A stretch of DNA of 64,000 nt, from positions 62,001-126,000 of the forward strand of contig NZ_FOKF01000003.1 in assembly GCF_900111995.1 (NCBI RefSeq). The letters are read 5' to 3'. The notes beneath the pieces are model-generated. The model was not told the DNA's origin. It was given only the letters and a program-made list of their open reading frames with translations, and searched no databases. The translations under genes were made by a program, and so were the position numbers. This document shows, piece by piece, positions 30,501-35,481 of this stretch. This stretch comes from Collimonas sp. OK607. Lineage in GTDB: Bacteria > Pseudomonadota > Gammaproteobacteria > Burkholderiales > Burkholderiaceae_D. Within the stretch, counting starts at the first letter, position 1. Every line of letters starts with the position of its first letter.

Positions 30501-33473
30501 GATTTTGCCGAATGGCGGCATGAGCCGGAGCGGCCGGTGTTGACCCAGTCGGTGCATGCGGCGCATTCGCTGGCCGGTAGTTCCGCCACGGTCGGCTTCA
30601 AGCCTTTGCAGGAAGTGGCGCATGCGCTGGAGATGGCGCTGCAACGGATGGCGCTGCAGCCAGGCAGCCTGCACGGATCCGATTACGACACCCTCCAGCT
30701 CAGCGTTGAGCGAGTCAAATGGATGTTGCAGCAATTTACGCAAGGCGACATGCCGTATTACGAACCGGCCCTGGTTAGCAGCCTGGACAGTTTGTGGCAA
30801 GGCCAGGAATCGCGTGGCGTAGAAGCAGAGACGCTGCAAGAGCCTGCCGCCGAGACCATCGCGCATATCGATGTGGCGGAAGCGCCGCAAGTAAATGCGG
30901 TACGTGAGTCCGAACCGGTAGTTGCGAGCCATTTCGGATCACTCACCGAACCAGGCGAAGTACAACCGGCACAACCGGTACAACCGATATCGATCGCGCC
31001 GGTTTTGTCAGTTACACCGCAGCATCCTGTTGCGGCAGTGCCCCATTTGTTCGATGCTGCGACGGAGGAGATCGATCCTGCGTTAGTGGTCCGGGATGAA
31101 CTGGATCCCGACTTGTTGCCGGTGTTTCTGGAAGAGGGTAGCGACATGTTGCCGCAAATCGGCAGTGCATTGCGCAGCTGGCAGCAGAACCCGTCTGACG
31201 TCAAACCGTCGCAAGCAATCCTGCGCCATCTGCACACCATCAAGGGCAGCGCCCGCATGGCTGGAGCGATGGTGCTTGGCCAGCATATGCACGAGATGGA
31301 AAGCCATATCGAGGTGGTTCTGCAGGCGGGTGCATCTTCCCGCCAGACCATCGATGAATTGCTGAGTCACTATGACCGCGGCGCGCAGATGTTCGAGAAT
31401 CTGCGCAATCCGCAAGCGCAGCAGCCGGTGCCAGCGGCACCAGTTGCTTCAGTTGAGTCTGGCGCGACGCCAGAAGCGCATTCGGCTGTCAATTTACCTA
31501 GCGTAATGCCGTCGCTGGCCCCCGGTGTGGCGCCGGTGCCTGCAGTGACCAGCGCCACCGGGCTGGTGTCGCAGGTGCGTGTCAATGCCGACGTGCTGGA
31601 CCGGCTGGTGAATCAGGCCGGTGAAGTGTCGATTACACGTTCGCGGCTCGAATCGGGTATCGGTACCTTGCAGATGTCTCTGTCAGAACTGACTGAAAAC
31701 GTCGACCGCTTGCGCAGCCAGTTGCGGGAAATCGAAATCCAGGCAGAAGCGCAGATCAGTTCACGCATGACGCTGGCCGGCGAGCGCGAATTCGATCCGC
31801 TTGAATTCGACCGTTTTACCCGCTTGCAGGAACTGACGCGGATGATGGCCGAGAGCGTCAACGACGTCGCCTCGCTGCAAAAAAATCTGACCATTACGGT
31901 AGATGGCGCCAACACCGACTTGTTGACGCAACGTCGCCTGACACGTGATCTGCAACAGGATCTGATGCATGTGCGTATGGTGCAGTTTGCGAGTATCGCC
32001 GAGCGTTTGTATCGATTGACGCGCCAGGTCGCCAAAGAACTGGATAAACGGGTCAACCTGGATATCCGCGGCAGCAACGTTGAAATCGACCGCAGTGTGC
32101 TGGAAAAAATGATCGGTCCGTTCGAGCATTTGCTGCGTAATGCGATCGTTCACGGGATTGAGTCCCGTGAAGCGCGGCGCGCCGCCGGCAAAAGCGAAAC
32201 CGGCGAGTTGAGACTCGAAATCCGTCAGGACGGCAATGAAATTCTGATTCAATTGTCGGATGACGGCCAGGGTTTGAACCTGCAGCGTATTCGCGACAAG
32301 GCGCGCACGATCGGCTTGCTGGAAAGCGATCAGCAGATAACCGACCTGGAAACCACCGACCTGATTTTCCGCCCTGGATTTTCGACCGCGGCGGATGTCA
32401 CGGAACTGGCTGGCCGCGGTGTCGGCATGGATGTGGTGCGCTCGGAAGCGGCTTCCCTGGGCGGCCGTGTTGCCGTCAGCAGCGATGCTGGCCAGGGTAC
32501 GCATTTCACGATTCACTTGCCGTTGACACTGGCGGTTACCCAGGTGGTTCTGTTGACCACTGGCGGCAGCACCTATGCGGTGCCGTCGGCGCTGGTCGAA
32601 CAGGTGCAGCAATTGAAGTCGAAGGCGCTGGCCGCGGCTTACAACGATGGCTCGCTGATCTGGCAAGGCCATAAGGTGCCGCTGCAGTATTTGTCGACCT
32701 TGCTGGGCGATGCCGAGATGGTGCCGGTGGCGCAGCAGTATTCACCTGTCATCATTTTGCGCAGCGGCAATGACCGGGTCGCGCTGCATGTGGATGAAAT
32801 CATCGGCAACCGAGAAGTCGTGGTCAAGAATATCGGCCCGCAACTGTCGCGGATGATCGGGATTGCCGGCGCTACCGTACTCGGCTCGGGCGATATCGTG
32901 CTGATCTTGAATCCGGTGCCGTTGGCGCAGCGGCAGCTGCAACATGCATCGCAAGAACTGCGGGCGCCGCGGCAGTCGGATATGGCTACCCATGATGTAA
33001 TGGGTGCCGTGGCGGAAATGGGCAGCAGCGCCGAGCATGGCGTCTTGCAGACAGCGCAGGTTGCTCAGGCCGTGCAAGGTTTGCGCAGCCAGAGTGTGGT
33101 GATGGTCGTCGACGATTCTCTGACCGTGCGACGGGTGACTCAGCGTTTGCTGTCGCGTGAAGGTTACCAGGTCGTGTTGGCCAAAGACGGTGTCGACGCG
33201 CTGGAGCAACTGCAAGCGATTACACCTGACGTGATGCTGGTGGATATTGAAATGCCGCGTATGGATGGTTTCGATTTGAGCCGCAATATCCGTAACGACG
33301 AACGCACCCGTCATATCCCTATCATCATGATTACTTCACGTACGGCGGCTAAACATCGCAGCTACGCGATGGAGCTGGGCGTCAACGAGTATCTGGGCAA
33401 GCCGTATCAGGAAGATGAATTGATCAGCACCATCAAGTCATATATCAGTAAAGAAGCTAGTACCCTGCAATAA
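27531..33473 (+). CDS. chpA: ChpA-type hybrid CheA histidine kinase of the pilus chemosensory system
   Basis: This is a 1980-residue multidomain kinase. Residues 1 to about 560 form FimL/Hpt-like helical domains. At least three Hpt domains with a phosphorylatable histidine follow: His770 (FHTLKGSGRMIG), His1012 (AHSLAGSSATVG) and His1235 (LHTIKGSARMAG), separated by Pro/Glu/Gln-rich linkers. Next come a CheA dimerisation region (VNADVLDRLVNQAGEVSITRSRLE), the HATPase domain with N, G1 and G2 boxes (about 1530-1660, LLRNAIVHGIE, SDDGQGL, GRGVGMDVV) and a CheW domain (about 1670-1810). A C-terminal receiver carries Asp1905 (LVDIEMPRMDG). It autophosphorylates under PilJ/PilI control and feeds PilG and PilH. 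It is the last gene of the operon. Confidence 0.95.
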   Translation: MTTDFSSTADSARTHLDTGPLSWVMSEIREALNQSGNALSQATGATSDDHATAIRHAKTYLHQAHGALQMVDIDGVIIITETIEDILERAESGQAELNQQHVQVIGNAYQALIEYLDEVLAGGSHQPVRLFPYYQALLEIRGAERIHPADLFFPDLTIRPHFPVAEQVAAVDAEVYLPLRKRFERALLPFLKSADKAVELENAAAMQVVVTEVEQMQRNQQSRAFWWVMHGFSEAVANDQISNELYVKQLFARINLQLRRLSQGSSSISERLLRDALFFIAGVEQASKLANQIRVAYRLNGLVPADYNIRHYGQISLDALGTAKDRLNQAKNMWDRLASGDASPAAAFEQEMHGLSEAGSQLNSPSLSKLLRELNGIARHAAHSRPGDAICMEIATSLLFIENTLNHISRLPENFSERADAMTARLLSVVSGEKLGKPAQWIDDIYREAQQRQTVKMLASEMLSSLRQVEKMLDEFFNDPERREVLTQIEQVLHQIQGALAIQEQSDAMRVVEHTRSTLQRFAAEGSDVVPEQKEFEQIAQNIGALSFFIETLQHQSDTQNNHFTFDEAAGVFRINLLERRAMVAAPLPDPIVPSSAGDSHAIVANTVVGDSLPSLPELATVEDELLQHQQQSAELALSLTAQPNDPELQEKLKESLVQMRVDAALSDNPEATDRAQAAIDILDHPDFTGSQQSMADIVTTIVPLHTAEVAAAAPVAAIAVSDEEADAELREIFLSEADEVLTNARNTLPLLHDAPHKQEPLTVLRRAFHTLKGSGRMIGLNAFGEAAWSVEQVLNLWLSESRAVSDDLNALLDHAVTQLDGWVKEIQQHGQSQQTPDALAEAAARVRDGGAFAETVPVHASALLAAPEELHEFGDLPDVPLQAEEIQLTDDDLAFFSAAHATDSVDLEQAPLPEILSEDHVEAIAEPAVIEATPEHQAEPVSAEVIAFPGMQEIRHDDSTKQIGDLTISLPLYNIYLAETDQLVRHLSHDFAEWRHEPERPVLTQSVHAAHSLAGSSATVGFKPLQEVAHALEMALQRMALQPGSLHGSDYDTLQLSVERVKWMLQQFTQGDMPYYEPALVSSLDSLWQGQESRGVEAETLQEPAAETIAHIDVAEAPQVNAVRESEPVVASHFGSLTEPGEVQPAQPVQPISIAPVLSVTPQHPVAAVPHLFDAATEEIDPALVVRDELDPDLLPVFLEEGSDMLPQIGSALRSWQQNPSDVKPSQAILRHLHTIKGSARMAGAMVLGQHMHEMESHIEVVLQAGASSRQTIDELLSHYDRGAQMFENLRNPQAQQPVPAAPVASVESGATPEAHSAVNLPSVMPSLAPGVAPVPAVTSATGLVSQVRVNADVLDRLVNQAGEVSITRSRLESGIGTLQMSLSELTENVDRLRSQLREIEIQAEAQISSRMTLAGEREFDPLEFDRFTRLQELTRMMAESVNDVASLQKNLTITVDGANTDLLTQRRLTRDLQQDLMHVRMVQFASIAERLYRLTRQVAKELDKRVNLDIRGSNVEIDRSVLEKMIGPFEHLLRNAIVHGIESREARRAAGKSETGELRLEIRQDGNEILIQLSDDGQGLNLQRIRDKARTIGLLESDQQITDLETTDLIFRPGFSTAADVTELAGRGVGMDVVRSEAASLGGRVAVSSDAGQGTHFTIHLPLTLAVTQVVLLTTGGSTYAVPSALVEQVQQLKSKALAAAYNDGSLIWQGHKVPLQYLSTLLGDAEMVPVAQQYSPVIILRSGNDRVALHVDEIIGNREVVVKNIGPQLSRMIGIAGATVLGSGDIVLILNPVPLAQRQLQHASQELRAPRQSDMATHDVMGAVAEMGSSAEHGVLQTAQVAQAVQGLRSQSVVMVVDDSLTVRRVTQRLLSREGYQVVLAKDGVDALEQLQAITPDVMLVDIEMPRMDGFDLSRNIRNDERTRHIPIIMITSRTAAKHRSYAMELGVNEYLGKPYQEDELISTIKSYISKEASTLQ

Positions 33474-33561: not shown

Positions 33562-33584
33562 CGGCTTTAGCGCATTCAAAAATG

Positions 33585-33720
33585 TTGACGTCCTCCCCGC
33601 CCTAAACGACGGGGATTCCTACTGCTAGCGTCGCACGTCCGCGACGGAGAATGTTCCTGGCGGCATTCACGTCGCGGTCGTGATGGGTGCCGCATTCCTT
33701 GCAAGTCCATTCTCTTATGC
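33585..33720 (-). ncRNA. Probable omega RNA (right-end element RNA) of TnpB
   Basis: In IS605-type elements the omega RNA scaffold covers the 3' end of tnpB and the right-end hairpin, and the guide is read from the flanking DNA. Here the hairpin at 33595-33614 and the end GGACGTCAAC at 33584-33593 (minus strand) fit this. The guide would be the sequence read leftward from about 33583 (starting atttttgaatgcgctaaag). The 5' boundary is a guess; only the 3' end is supported by sequence. Confidence 0.55.
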
Positions 33721-34690
33721 CAAGATCTTTCAGACCTTTCGGTCCGCTGCGCGTTTTGCACACAGAACAGTCTTGGGTGGAATACGCTTCATTGACCTCT
33801 TCGAACCATACCCCTGCACCAATGCATTTGTAATTGAGCATGGTTCGGAATTGTGACCAGCCGGCATCCAGGACAGACTTCGCCATCGTGGTTTTTGCCA
33901 GACCGCTCGCATTCACATTGCCAATGAAGATGGCACCGCTCTGCTCCACCAGGGCGGTGCTCAGTTTGTGCTGATAATCCTTACGTCTGTTTTTGATCTT
34001 GGCGTGGATCGCCCGGGTCAGTTTTTTTTTCTTTGCACGCTGCGCCACAGCTAGGCGATGTTCAGCCAAGCGGTAGAACTGCTGGCAATCTTCTTTCTTG
34101 CCATCAGAGAAGGCGGCGAACTCTTTCAAGCCCAGATCAATACCGATCATTTTGGTGGCAGTCGATACGGTCTTCTTCACTTTGACCGTGATATTGATGT
34201 ACCAGCGCCCGCGGGCGTCTTCCGCAATCGATCCGGCACCCAACGCGTATTGGGAAAGGCCGTAGCTGTCCCACAGGGACAGTGGCGCGTCGATCCCTGA
34301 CATCTTGAGCTGGCCATTTCGATATTGCAGCGCAGAGGCTTTAAACGGGATCCAGCCGAGCGACCGGCGAGATCCTTTGGAGACGCGCCAACGCAGCTTC
34401 ACCTTTTTGAATTGTTTGCGCCGAACGGCGAACTCTTCGGAGATTGCCTGGATGGTTTGGGAGTGCAACGGAACACCGGCTTTGCTGGCGCCCTTGGTGT
34501 ATTTGGCGAAATCAAATCCGGACATGAAATGCCGCTCGCGTTGCCACACCTTATAACTGAGTTCGTTGCAGTAATTCCAGACCTGGTTTGCCCAAAAAGA
34601 TTTCTCCCTCAAGATGGCAGCGTGCTTGTCCTTCAGCCTGAGCCGAATAACACGTACAACCTCATCTGATGGAGAAGAATCTTTTGCCAT
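33602..34690 (-). CDS. tnpB: TnpB (IS200/IS605 OrfB), probable RNA-guided RuvC nuclease
   Basis: The intact protein is 362 residues from the ATG at 34690 (374 from 34726; numbering here uses the longer form). An N-terminal wedge/REC-like half precedes a RuvC domain with Asp197 (MIGIDLGLKEFA) and Asp352 (HDRDVNAARNIL), and a zinc ribbon CSVC...CKEC. At the usual RuvC-II glutamate position the sequence is IFIGNVNASG (Gly269). Glutamates 309, 310 and 313 in WFEEVNEAYSTQDCS lie about 40 residues later and could supply the third acidic ligand. The known role is cleavage of DNA at a transposon-adjacent motif, guided by an omega RNA from the element's right end. The TAG stop is in the loop of the right-end hairpin. 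No frameshift is seen. Confidence 0.9.
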   Translation of the reverse strand: MAKDSSPSDEVVRVIRLRLKDKHAAILREKSFWANQVWNYCNELSYKVWQRERHFMSGFDFAKYTKGASKAGVPLHSQTIQAISEEFAVRRKQFKKVKLRWRVSKGSRRSLGWIPFKASALQYRNGQLKMSGIDAPLSLWDSYGLSQYALGAGSIAEDARGRWYINITVKVKKTVSTATKMIGIDLGLKEFAAFSDGKKEDCQQFYRLAEHRLAVAQRAKKKKLTRAIHAKIKNRRKDYQHKLSTALVEQSGAIFIGNVNASGLAKTTMAKSVLDAGWSQFRTMLNYKCIGAGVWFEEVNEAYSTQDCSVCKTRSGPKGLKDLGIREWTCKECGTHHDRDVNAARNILRRGRATLAVGIPVV

Positions 34691-34821
34691 GGAATATTGA
34701 ATTGCTGTATGAATGCACAGTATCATGGAGCGAAAGAAAAATGCAAGGAGGCTGTCGCTTCCGCGCTTTTATCCCCAACCTGAAGGACGGGATTTTACGC
34801 GCAACCTGATAAAATGCGTCT

Positions 34822-35481
34822 ATGGCTAAGCTCGATACAACTCCGGAAGATTCTCCCGTGCCCAAGAGCGGCGCGAAGGCGGACGCGGATTCGCCGTCCC
34901 TGAATCTGACAAATCATTTCCTTATTGCAATGCCCTCCATGCTGGATCCCGTTTTCGGCGGGACCGTGGTCTATTTGTGTGAACATAATGCCAATGGTGC
35001 ACTCGGCGTGGTAATCAACAAACCGACCGATATGACCATGCAGGTGTTATTCGACCGTATCGATCTGAAGCTTGAGATCAGTCCCGCAGCGAGCGGGCTG
35101 GATTTCGACGATCCGATGGCCGAACGGCCAGTAATGTTTGGCGGTCCGGTCCAGGTCGAGCGCGGTTTTGTACTGCATATGCCGGTCAAACAGTATTCAT
35201 CAACACTGACAGTGACTGATCAGATTGCCATGACCACCTCCAAAGATGTGCTGGAGGAAGTCGCTCATGGCAACGGGCCGCAGCGGATCCTGGTCAGCCT
35301 GGGATGTTCCGGCTGGAGCGCCGGCCAGCTGGAAAGTGAAATTGTCCGTAACGGCTGGCTGACCGTGGCAGCCGATCCCGCCATCATTTTTGAATTGCCG
35401 ATTGCCGAACGTTTTGCCGCAGCAGTCAATCTGCTGGGCATTTCACCCTATATGCTGACTGCGGAATCCGGACGTGCGTGA
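34822..35481 (+). CDS. yqgE: UPF0301 protein YqgE/AlgH
   Basis: The 219-residue protein has an N-terminal disordered segment and then the YqgE fold, beginning LNLTNHFLIAMPSMLDPVFGGTVVYLCEHNANGALGVVINKP, the family signature. Later motifs are MFGGPVQVERGFVLH and VSLGCSGWSAGQLE. The function is not established despite wide conservation. It lies 39 bp before ruvX, the usual order. Its upstream region is shared with the left end of the tnpB element; a GATAAAAT hexamer-like sequence just before the gene could be its -10 box. Confidence 0.93.
   Translation: MAKLDTTPEDSPVPKSGAKADADSPSLNLTNHFLIAMPSMLDPVFGGTVVYLCEHNANGALGVVINKPTDMTMQVLFDRIDLKLEISPAASGLDFDDPMAERPVMFGGPVQVERGFVLHMPVKQYSSTLTVTDQIAMTTSKDVLEEVAHGNGPQRILVSLGCSGWSAGQLESEIVRNGWLTVAADPAIIFELPIAERFAAAVNLLGISPYMLTAESGRA

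What the first reader, a model, noticed from the sequence alone, without database searches (positions are those of the whole stretch)
33585..34808. Stand-alone tnpB with displaced RuvC-II glutamate and a readable omega-RNA end
The sequence shows an intact tnpB without tnpA, both sub-terminal hairpins, and a guide-adjacent end (GGACGTCAAC). The usual RuvC-II glutamate is Gly (IFIGNVNASG), while three acidic residues lie in WFEEVNEAY. Published TnpB surveys describe subfamilies whose third acidic ligand has moved; this copy fits that pattern and is probably active rather than dead. The implied guide (from about 33583 leftward) lies in the chpA-yqgE gap, so the nuclease would target the empty site and keep the element in place. 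A TTTAT at 34809-34813 (minus strand) is a candidate transposon-adjacent motif.
Basis: partly seen in the sequence, partly recalled or inferred. Interest (0 to 1): 0.6.

Follow-up and report, generated by a model that had tools for sequence, protein, structure and literature searches.

The report
RNA-guided TnpB with relocated catalytic glutamate
A small jumping-gene relative of CRISPR nucleases, sitting alone between two host genes, carries one key catalytic residue in a different place but looks intact, and it belongs to an already described group.

Summary
Window 33585-34808 (minus strand, 1224 bp) is a complete IS200/IS605-type element carrying only tnpB. The 14 other genomes of the genus that were searched lack it and keep the empty site. 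The canonical RuvC-II glutamate is Gly in 26 of 26 aligned proteins of this type, and the third acid of WFEEVNEAY (E313) is Glu in all 26. Six residues separate it from the first zinc-finger Cys: the published 'Ealt' arrangement. The right end is a guide-RNA scaffold with strong covariation, including the loop-to-terminus pseudoknot. The ORF is intact and conserved. No IS200/IS605 TnpA was found in the genome, only two REP-associated-type transposases. Best reading: a probably active, stranded nuclease aimed at its own empty site; activity is inferred, not shown. It is a new member of a known kind. In passing: in a sister clade, 36 of 36 left ends lie directly against TCAT, in most cases the start codon of a gene, and supply a Shine-Dalgarno-like sequence.

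The parts
33585..34808 (-). whole element, 1224 bp, IS200/IS605-type, tnpB only
   Evidence: right end GTCAA located in 43 of 47 rows of at least 43% identity, own copy included; left end right after TTTAT; empty site in 14 of 14 congeners (12, 2)
33602..34690 (-). tnpB coding sequence from the likely start (362 aa); the longest ORF starts at 34726 (374 aa)
34136..34138 (-). RuvC-I aspartate D197 (numbered in the 374-aa ORF)
   Evidence: Asp in 32 of 32 aligned proteins
33920..33922 (-). canonical RuvC-II place, here Gly269
   Evidence: Gly in 26 of 26 of this type, Glu in 6 of 6 canonical relatives
33788..33790 (-). relocated RuvC-II glutamate E313 (third acid of WFEEVNEAY)
   Evidence: Glu in 26 of 26 of this type, Arg or Lys in 6 of 6 canonical relatives; last residue of a predicted strand
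33692..33769 (-). zinc finger, C320/C323/C342/C345
   Evidence: Pfam Cas12f1-like_TNB
33671..33673 (-). RuvC-III aspartate D352
   Evidence: Asp in 32 of 32 aligned proteins
33585..33713 (-). guide-RNA (omega RNA) scaffold, about 130 nt; 5' end inferred from the outermost conserved helix
   Evidence: covariation, 40 right ends; weak Rfam HgcC match 33572-33695, 23.7 bits, below its gathering score of 50
33629..33646 (-). stem-loop CGTCGC-GGACGT-GCGACG; its loop 33635-33639 pairs with 33587-33591 (pseudoknot)
   Evidence: 6 of 6 stem pairs change on both sides; pseudoknot cells 98.9% paired
33595..33614 (-). right-end hairpin spanning the tnpB stop codon
   Evidence: 5 of 7 pairs change on both sides, 90.6% of cells paired
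33565..33584 (-). guide (first 20 nt shown), in the gap before yqgE, read away from the element
   Evidence: sequence directly after GTCAA, which differs between copies
34771..34793 (-). left-end hairpin, inside an outer stem 34763-34802
   Evidence: predicted fold, z -0.79 on its own
34809..34813 (-). TTTAT, target / transposon-adjacent motif
   Evidence: empty site TTTATCAGTTTTGAATGCGC

Best explanation
A single-copy, tnpB-only IS200/IS605-type element inserted cleanly (no duplication) 12 bp before the yqgE start codon. Its TnpB keeps a D-E-D RuvC triad in the Ealt layout: D197, E313 after the fifth core strand, D352. The tnpB transcript is trimmed to a roughly 130-nt omega RNA whose scaffold ends at 33585; whatever lies beyond, here the chpA-yqgE gap, becomes the guide. 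The complex should cut TTTAT plus the matching guide sequence, which exists whole only in an allele without the element, and so favours keeping the element. Shown: the edges, the motif, the residue swap, the conserved RNA fold, the empty sites. Inferred: expression, cleavage, maintenance. No IS200/IS605 TnpA was found in the genome, so the copy can move only if one is supplied from elsewhere.
For: Edges and motif. Ealt layout. Fold: ISDra2 TnpB 8h1j Z 23.8 (rmsd 3.8, 326 aligned) and mimivirus Fanzor2 9b0l Z 23.0 (rmsd 4.0, 337 aligned), a tie. Guide RNA: (97.1% of cells paired; 14 of 27 pairs with a change on both sides against 9.2 in shuffles; 0 of 500 shuffles as high). Purifying selection: dN 0.21, dS 1.33 against L008, one pair only. 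No TnpA. An Ealt relative on an Acidovorax plasmid lies beside an IS200/IS605 tnpA.
Against: No activity data for this copy. The guide does not match the congeners' empty site perfectly (one mismatch at guide position 3). Triad distances could not be measured, as no coordinates were given. No congener carries the element, so conservation of this copy over time in its own genus cannot be tested. A consensus scan found no sigma-70 promoter on the tnpB strand.
Confidence: 0.8

Rival explanations
1. The protein binds RNA and DNA but no longer cuts, acting as an RNA-guided roadblock like TldR or Cas12m.
For: It lacks the canonical glutamate. It sits alone, beside a conserved promoter-like box of yqgE.
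Against: The alternative glutamate, both aspartates and the zinc finger are kept. The same swap runs through a whole clade of multi-copy elements. The Cell 2024 Fanzor paper (passages) describes the triad glutamate of nucleases that cut DNA on the loop between the fifth strand and the TNB domain. No second TTTAT-plus-guide site with fewer than 3 mismatches was found in the genome.
Confidence: 0.1
2. A stranded relic: intact so far, but silent and no longer kept by selection.
For: Single copy, no TnpA found, absent from 14 of 14 congeners. Decayed relatives are common in the family.
Against: The ORF, triad, zinc finger and pseudoknot are all unbroken. But a recent insertion would look the same.
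Confidence: 0.25
3. The true edges are 33582-34805, shifted by three bases.
For: They rebuild the congeners' empty site without any mismatch.
Against: Right ends of relatives stop at GTCAA. Two near-identical copies (L007, L042) diverge straight after it and share the C after TTTAT. Left ends beginning TTTAT-CAGG and TTTAT-CAGA occur elsewhere.
Confidence: 0.08

Closest known systems
Ealt TnpBs with a D-hydrophobic-G motif (Yoon et al. NAR 2023, PMC10711439), probably the RuvC-II-rearranged 'RII-r' clades of Nety et al. 2023 (PMC10278001); that the two names overlap is my inference
   Same: Glu six residues before the zinc finger, RuvC-I motif DLG, prokaryotic mobile element
   Different: 113 residues separate DLG from the Glu here; their search pattern allowed 120-160. 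Which RII-r number applies was not tested.
ISDra2 TnpB (IS200/IS605)
   Same: fold (Z 23.8), right-end guide RNA, motif directly beside the left end
   Different: ISDra2 has the glutamate in the canonical place
Fanzor2 and pro-Fanzor
   Same: Ealt glutamate; mimivirus Fanzor2 fold match Z 23.0
   Different: DLG instead of DPG; variable base after the right end rather than a fixed IS607-type one
IS200/IS605 elements with Y1 TnpA in related bacteria (L119 plasmid pEP1; L164, L165)
   Same: Ealt TnpB beside TnpA in L119; TTTAT and near-identical left end in L164 and L165
   Different: the window copy has no tnpA; the TnpB of L164 and L165 has the canonical Glu (read by eye)

Membership tests
RNA-guided TnpB | family model above curated cut-off | tested here: met
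   NF040570 guided_TnpB 229.1 bits, cut-off 100; PF07282 86.1 bits and PF01385 50.7 bits, both over cut-off
RNA-guided TnpB | right-end guide RNA with subterminal hairpin and pseudoknot | tested here: met
   pseudoknot layout as described in PMC12558985 (passages)
RNA-guided TnpB | RNA-guided DNA cleavage | not testable with these tools
   needs an assay
Ealt (D-hydrophobic-G) TnpB clade | Glu followed by six residues and CxxC, no canonical Glu | tested here: met
   E313, C320, C323; Gly269
Ealt (D-hydrophobic-G) TnpB clade | published search pattern: 120-160 residues between DxG and the Glu | tested here: not met
   113 residues between DLG and E313, counted. This is a search filter of the authors, not a functional trait, so I still place the protein beside that clade.
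Ealt (D-hydrophobic-G) TnpB clade | groups apart from canonical-Glu TnpBs | tested here: met
   66-row quick tree, split supported at 100 (SH-aLRT); sides 49 (43 matched the Ealt pattern, 6 did not) and 17 (14 and 3)
Pro-Fanzor / Fanzor2 | DPG in RuvC-I | tested here: not met
   GIDLG
IS200/IS605 element | insertion without duplication, base after the right end variable, scaffold ends at the element boundary | tested here: met
   criterion from PMC10711439 (passages)
IS200/IS605 element | Y1 transposase tnpA | tested here: not met
   two Y1-type hits in the genome score as REP-associated (197.4 bits, cut-off 80; and 73 bits, just below cut-off). tnpB-only members of the family are known (recalled).
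TldR (nuclease-dead TnpB) | loss of RuvC catalytic residues | tested here: not met
   D197, E313, D352 kept; that TldRs lack them is recalled

The most novel reading that the evidence does not exclude
Ealt TnpB elements in this bacterial family have ends tuned to host gene starts. In the sister clade the left end always abuts TCAT, the reverse complement of an ATGA start, and places GGAG eight bases before the ATG. The insertion thus hands the gene a new Shine-Dalgarno sequence and stays harmless, while the nuclease uses start codons as its motif. The window copy, just before yqgE, is a cousin but does not itself show this design.
Probability: 0.6. Interest if true: 0.6.

Novelty: new member of a known kind. 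Interest (0 to 1): 0.32.

Why it matters
It gives a clean, small example (362 aa, about 130-nt scaffold, exact edges, a known empty site) of a TnpB type with a relocated glutamate. That makes it a good test of whether such bacterial enzymes cut DNA in trans less than canonical ones, a difference that PMC10711439 suggests may have helped Fanzors to spread in eukaryotes (passage). The sister clade's start-codon habit, if confirmed, would be a way for a mobile element to insert at essential gene starts without harm.

Tried and rejected
IS607 origin: rejected, since the base after the right end varies and no dinucleotide overlap is seen. TldR: triad kept. Start-codon or promoter preference of the window's own group: not supported. 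One search rejoined flanks of nine relatives and at least L046 and L009 seem to lie in open frames, but the script picked an internal GTCAA as right end in several rows, so I do not use its other rows. Whole-element search in the own genome gave one copy only. Search of the own genome with a TnpA reading from L164 found nothing, without a positive control. The consensus promoter scan found nothing on the tnpB strand. Plasmid search with a group-B stretch gave one weak unrelated-looking record. Paper PMC10432273: term search gave no passage, so nothing was read. Paper searches for start-codon insertion of such elements (listings only) showed no paper whose title or abstract start describes it; one search returned none. 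Rows dropped: in the tree, rows under 250 aa; in the guide-RNA alignment, six relatives without a parsed right end and L022, left out by me; L020 and L021, decayed copies, stayed in. The alignment was partly used to derive the structure that was counted, which favours it over the slid controls.

Full report
What is there. The minus strand of 33585-34808 holds one element with a single gene, tnpB, between a long chemotaxis-type histidine kinase gene ending at 33473 and yqgE starting at 34822. The protein is a clear RNA-guided TnpB. It is present once in its genome and in none of the 14 other genomes of the genus searched.

Edges. The same gap in congeners is empty. Twelve of 14 were read directly (two loci were printed on the other strand), and the other two, G061 and G186, match exactly beside yqgE. 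On the minus strand all carry TTTATCAGTTTT. The window reads TTTAT, element, CATTTTTGAATGCGC, so the rejoined site has the same length with one substitution (window 33582). Right ends of relatives stop at GTCAA: 43 of 47 rows of at least 43% identity, own copy included, had one located. Left ends of the window's own group, 10 located by a pattern that demanded [CT]TTA[TC], follow TTTAT six times, TTTAC three times and CTTAT once.

The moved residue. Numbers refer to the 374-aa ORF. In 26 aligned proteins of this type, Gly stands at the canonical place (269) in 26 and Glu at 313 in 26. In six canonical relatives, Glu is at the first place and Arg or Lys at the second in all six. The two other acids of WFEEVNEAY vary: first 17 Glu, 4 Asp and 5 non-acidic; second 25 Glu and 1 Val. 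So only the third is a candidate ligand. Six residues separate it from the zinc-finger CxxC, as in the Ealt class of PMC10711439 (passages). The stretch between DLG and this Glu is 113 residues, below the 120-160 of their search pattern. In the AlphaFold2 model (mean pLDDT 81.8, pTM 0.58, 32 sequences) the residue ends a strand just before the zinc-finger part. PMC11423790 (passages) places the Fanzor glutamate on the loop between the fifth strand and the TNB domain. No coordinates were given, so distances were not measured. A 66-row tree separates the two layouts with support 100. Six rows on the Ealt side failed my text pattern; by eye L056, L057, L058 and L118 keep the Glu, L020 keeps it with a broken zinc finger, and L021 is too decayed to read.

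The guide RNA. Forty right ends (39 relatives and the window) give a consensus of a long outer helix, a stem-loop, a short helix, a right-end hairpin and a pseudoknot from the stem-loop to the terminal GACGTC. Of 1024 cells 97.1% are paired, against 84.1% in shuffles; 14 of 27 pairs change on both sides, against 9.2; 0 of 500 shuffles are as high. Loop and terminus change together: GGACGT with GACGTC, GGACAT with GATGTC, GGGCTT with GAAGTC. [quoted passage not shown] Rfam gives only a sub-threshold HgcC match (23.7 against 50 bits).

Mobility. Two Y1-type proteins in the genome score as REP-associated transposases, one over the curated cut-off and one just below it. Related genomes hold elements with a TnpA-like ORF, a canonical tnpB and a nearly identical left end after TTTAT (L164, L165; read by eye). 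A plasmid relative of the Ealt type has an annotated IS200/IS605 tnpA beside it (154.7 bits). So the ends fit that machinery, but this copy depends on outside help.

Activity. Selection on the gene is purifying in the one pair tested (dN 0.21, dS 1.33). Nety et al. note no a priori expectation that rearranged clades are inactive and found omega-RNA processing across the tree in 30 of 59 orthologs (section 13 read); which of those were rearranged I did not see. The genome holds no other TTTAT-plus-guide site with fewer than 3 mismatches, so the nuclease should not cut its host.

Sister clade. Elements 43-50% identical in TnpB begin right after TCAT in 36 of 36 distinct left ends (script on 70 loci, no demand on TCAT). 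In 32 of 36 the reverse ATG opens a frame of 80 codons or more; other TCAT sites in the same loci do so in 61 of 134 (Fisher p 2e-6, computed with 31 of 35). Ten chosen genes all carry Pfam domains whose first match starts between residues 1 and 35, for example pilins, RibD and a response regulator. The left end reads GGAGCAAATCTG before the ATG in most copies. One search lists only the first 16 of 40 and 16 of 18 ends of the two richest genomes, so this is a sample.

Verdict. The finding is real and correctly read, and it belongs to a described class.

Noticed in passing
L011-L014, L016, L017, L045, L048-L058, L086, L087, L095, L106, L107, L113, L114, L122-L140 (left ends): Sister-clade Ealt TnpB elements abut TCAT in 36 of 36 left ends, mostly the start codon of an oppositely read gene, and their end carries GGAG eight bases before the ATG.
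   Followed up: partly
L164, L165: Elements with a TnpA-like ORF and a canonical-Glu tnpB share the window element's left-end sequence after TTTAT, so elements with different TnpB types seem to share ends.
   Followed up: partly
L155: A copy under 300 bp with the same kind of left end (TTTAT-CAGACTTGCGCGTAAAACC) and a right end GGGGAGGATGTGAA, without tnpB: a deletion derivative.
   Followed up: no
34806-34824: CTGATAAAATGC before the yqgE start is kept in the congeners read and looks like an extended -10 box; the insertion lies right against it and leaves it intact.
   Followed up: no
33572-33695 (-): Sub-threshold match to Rfam HgcC, whose 3' end resembles a TnpB guide-RNA end; that family may itself be an omega RNA.
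   Followed up: no
L056, L057: Both carry the same eight-residue insertion between the zinc-finger halves, encoded by a palindromic CATGTTCACTGAACATG stretch.
   Followed up: no
L040, L041 (G197): yqgE of this congener matches in two overlapping pieces in different frames, as if frameshifted.
   Followed up: no
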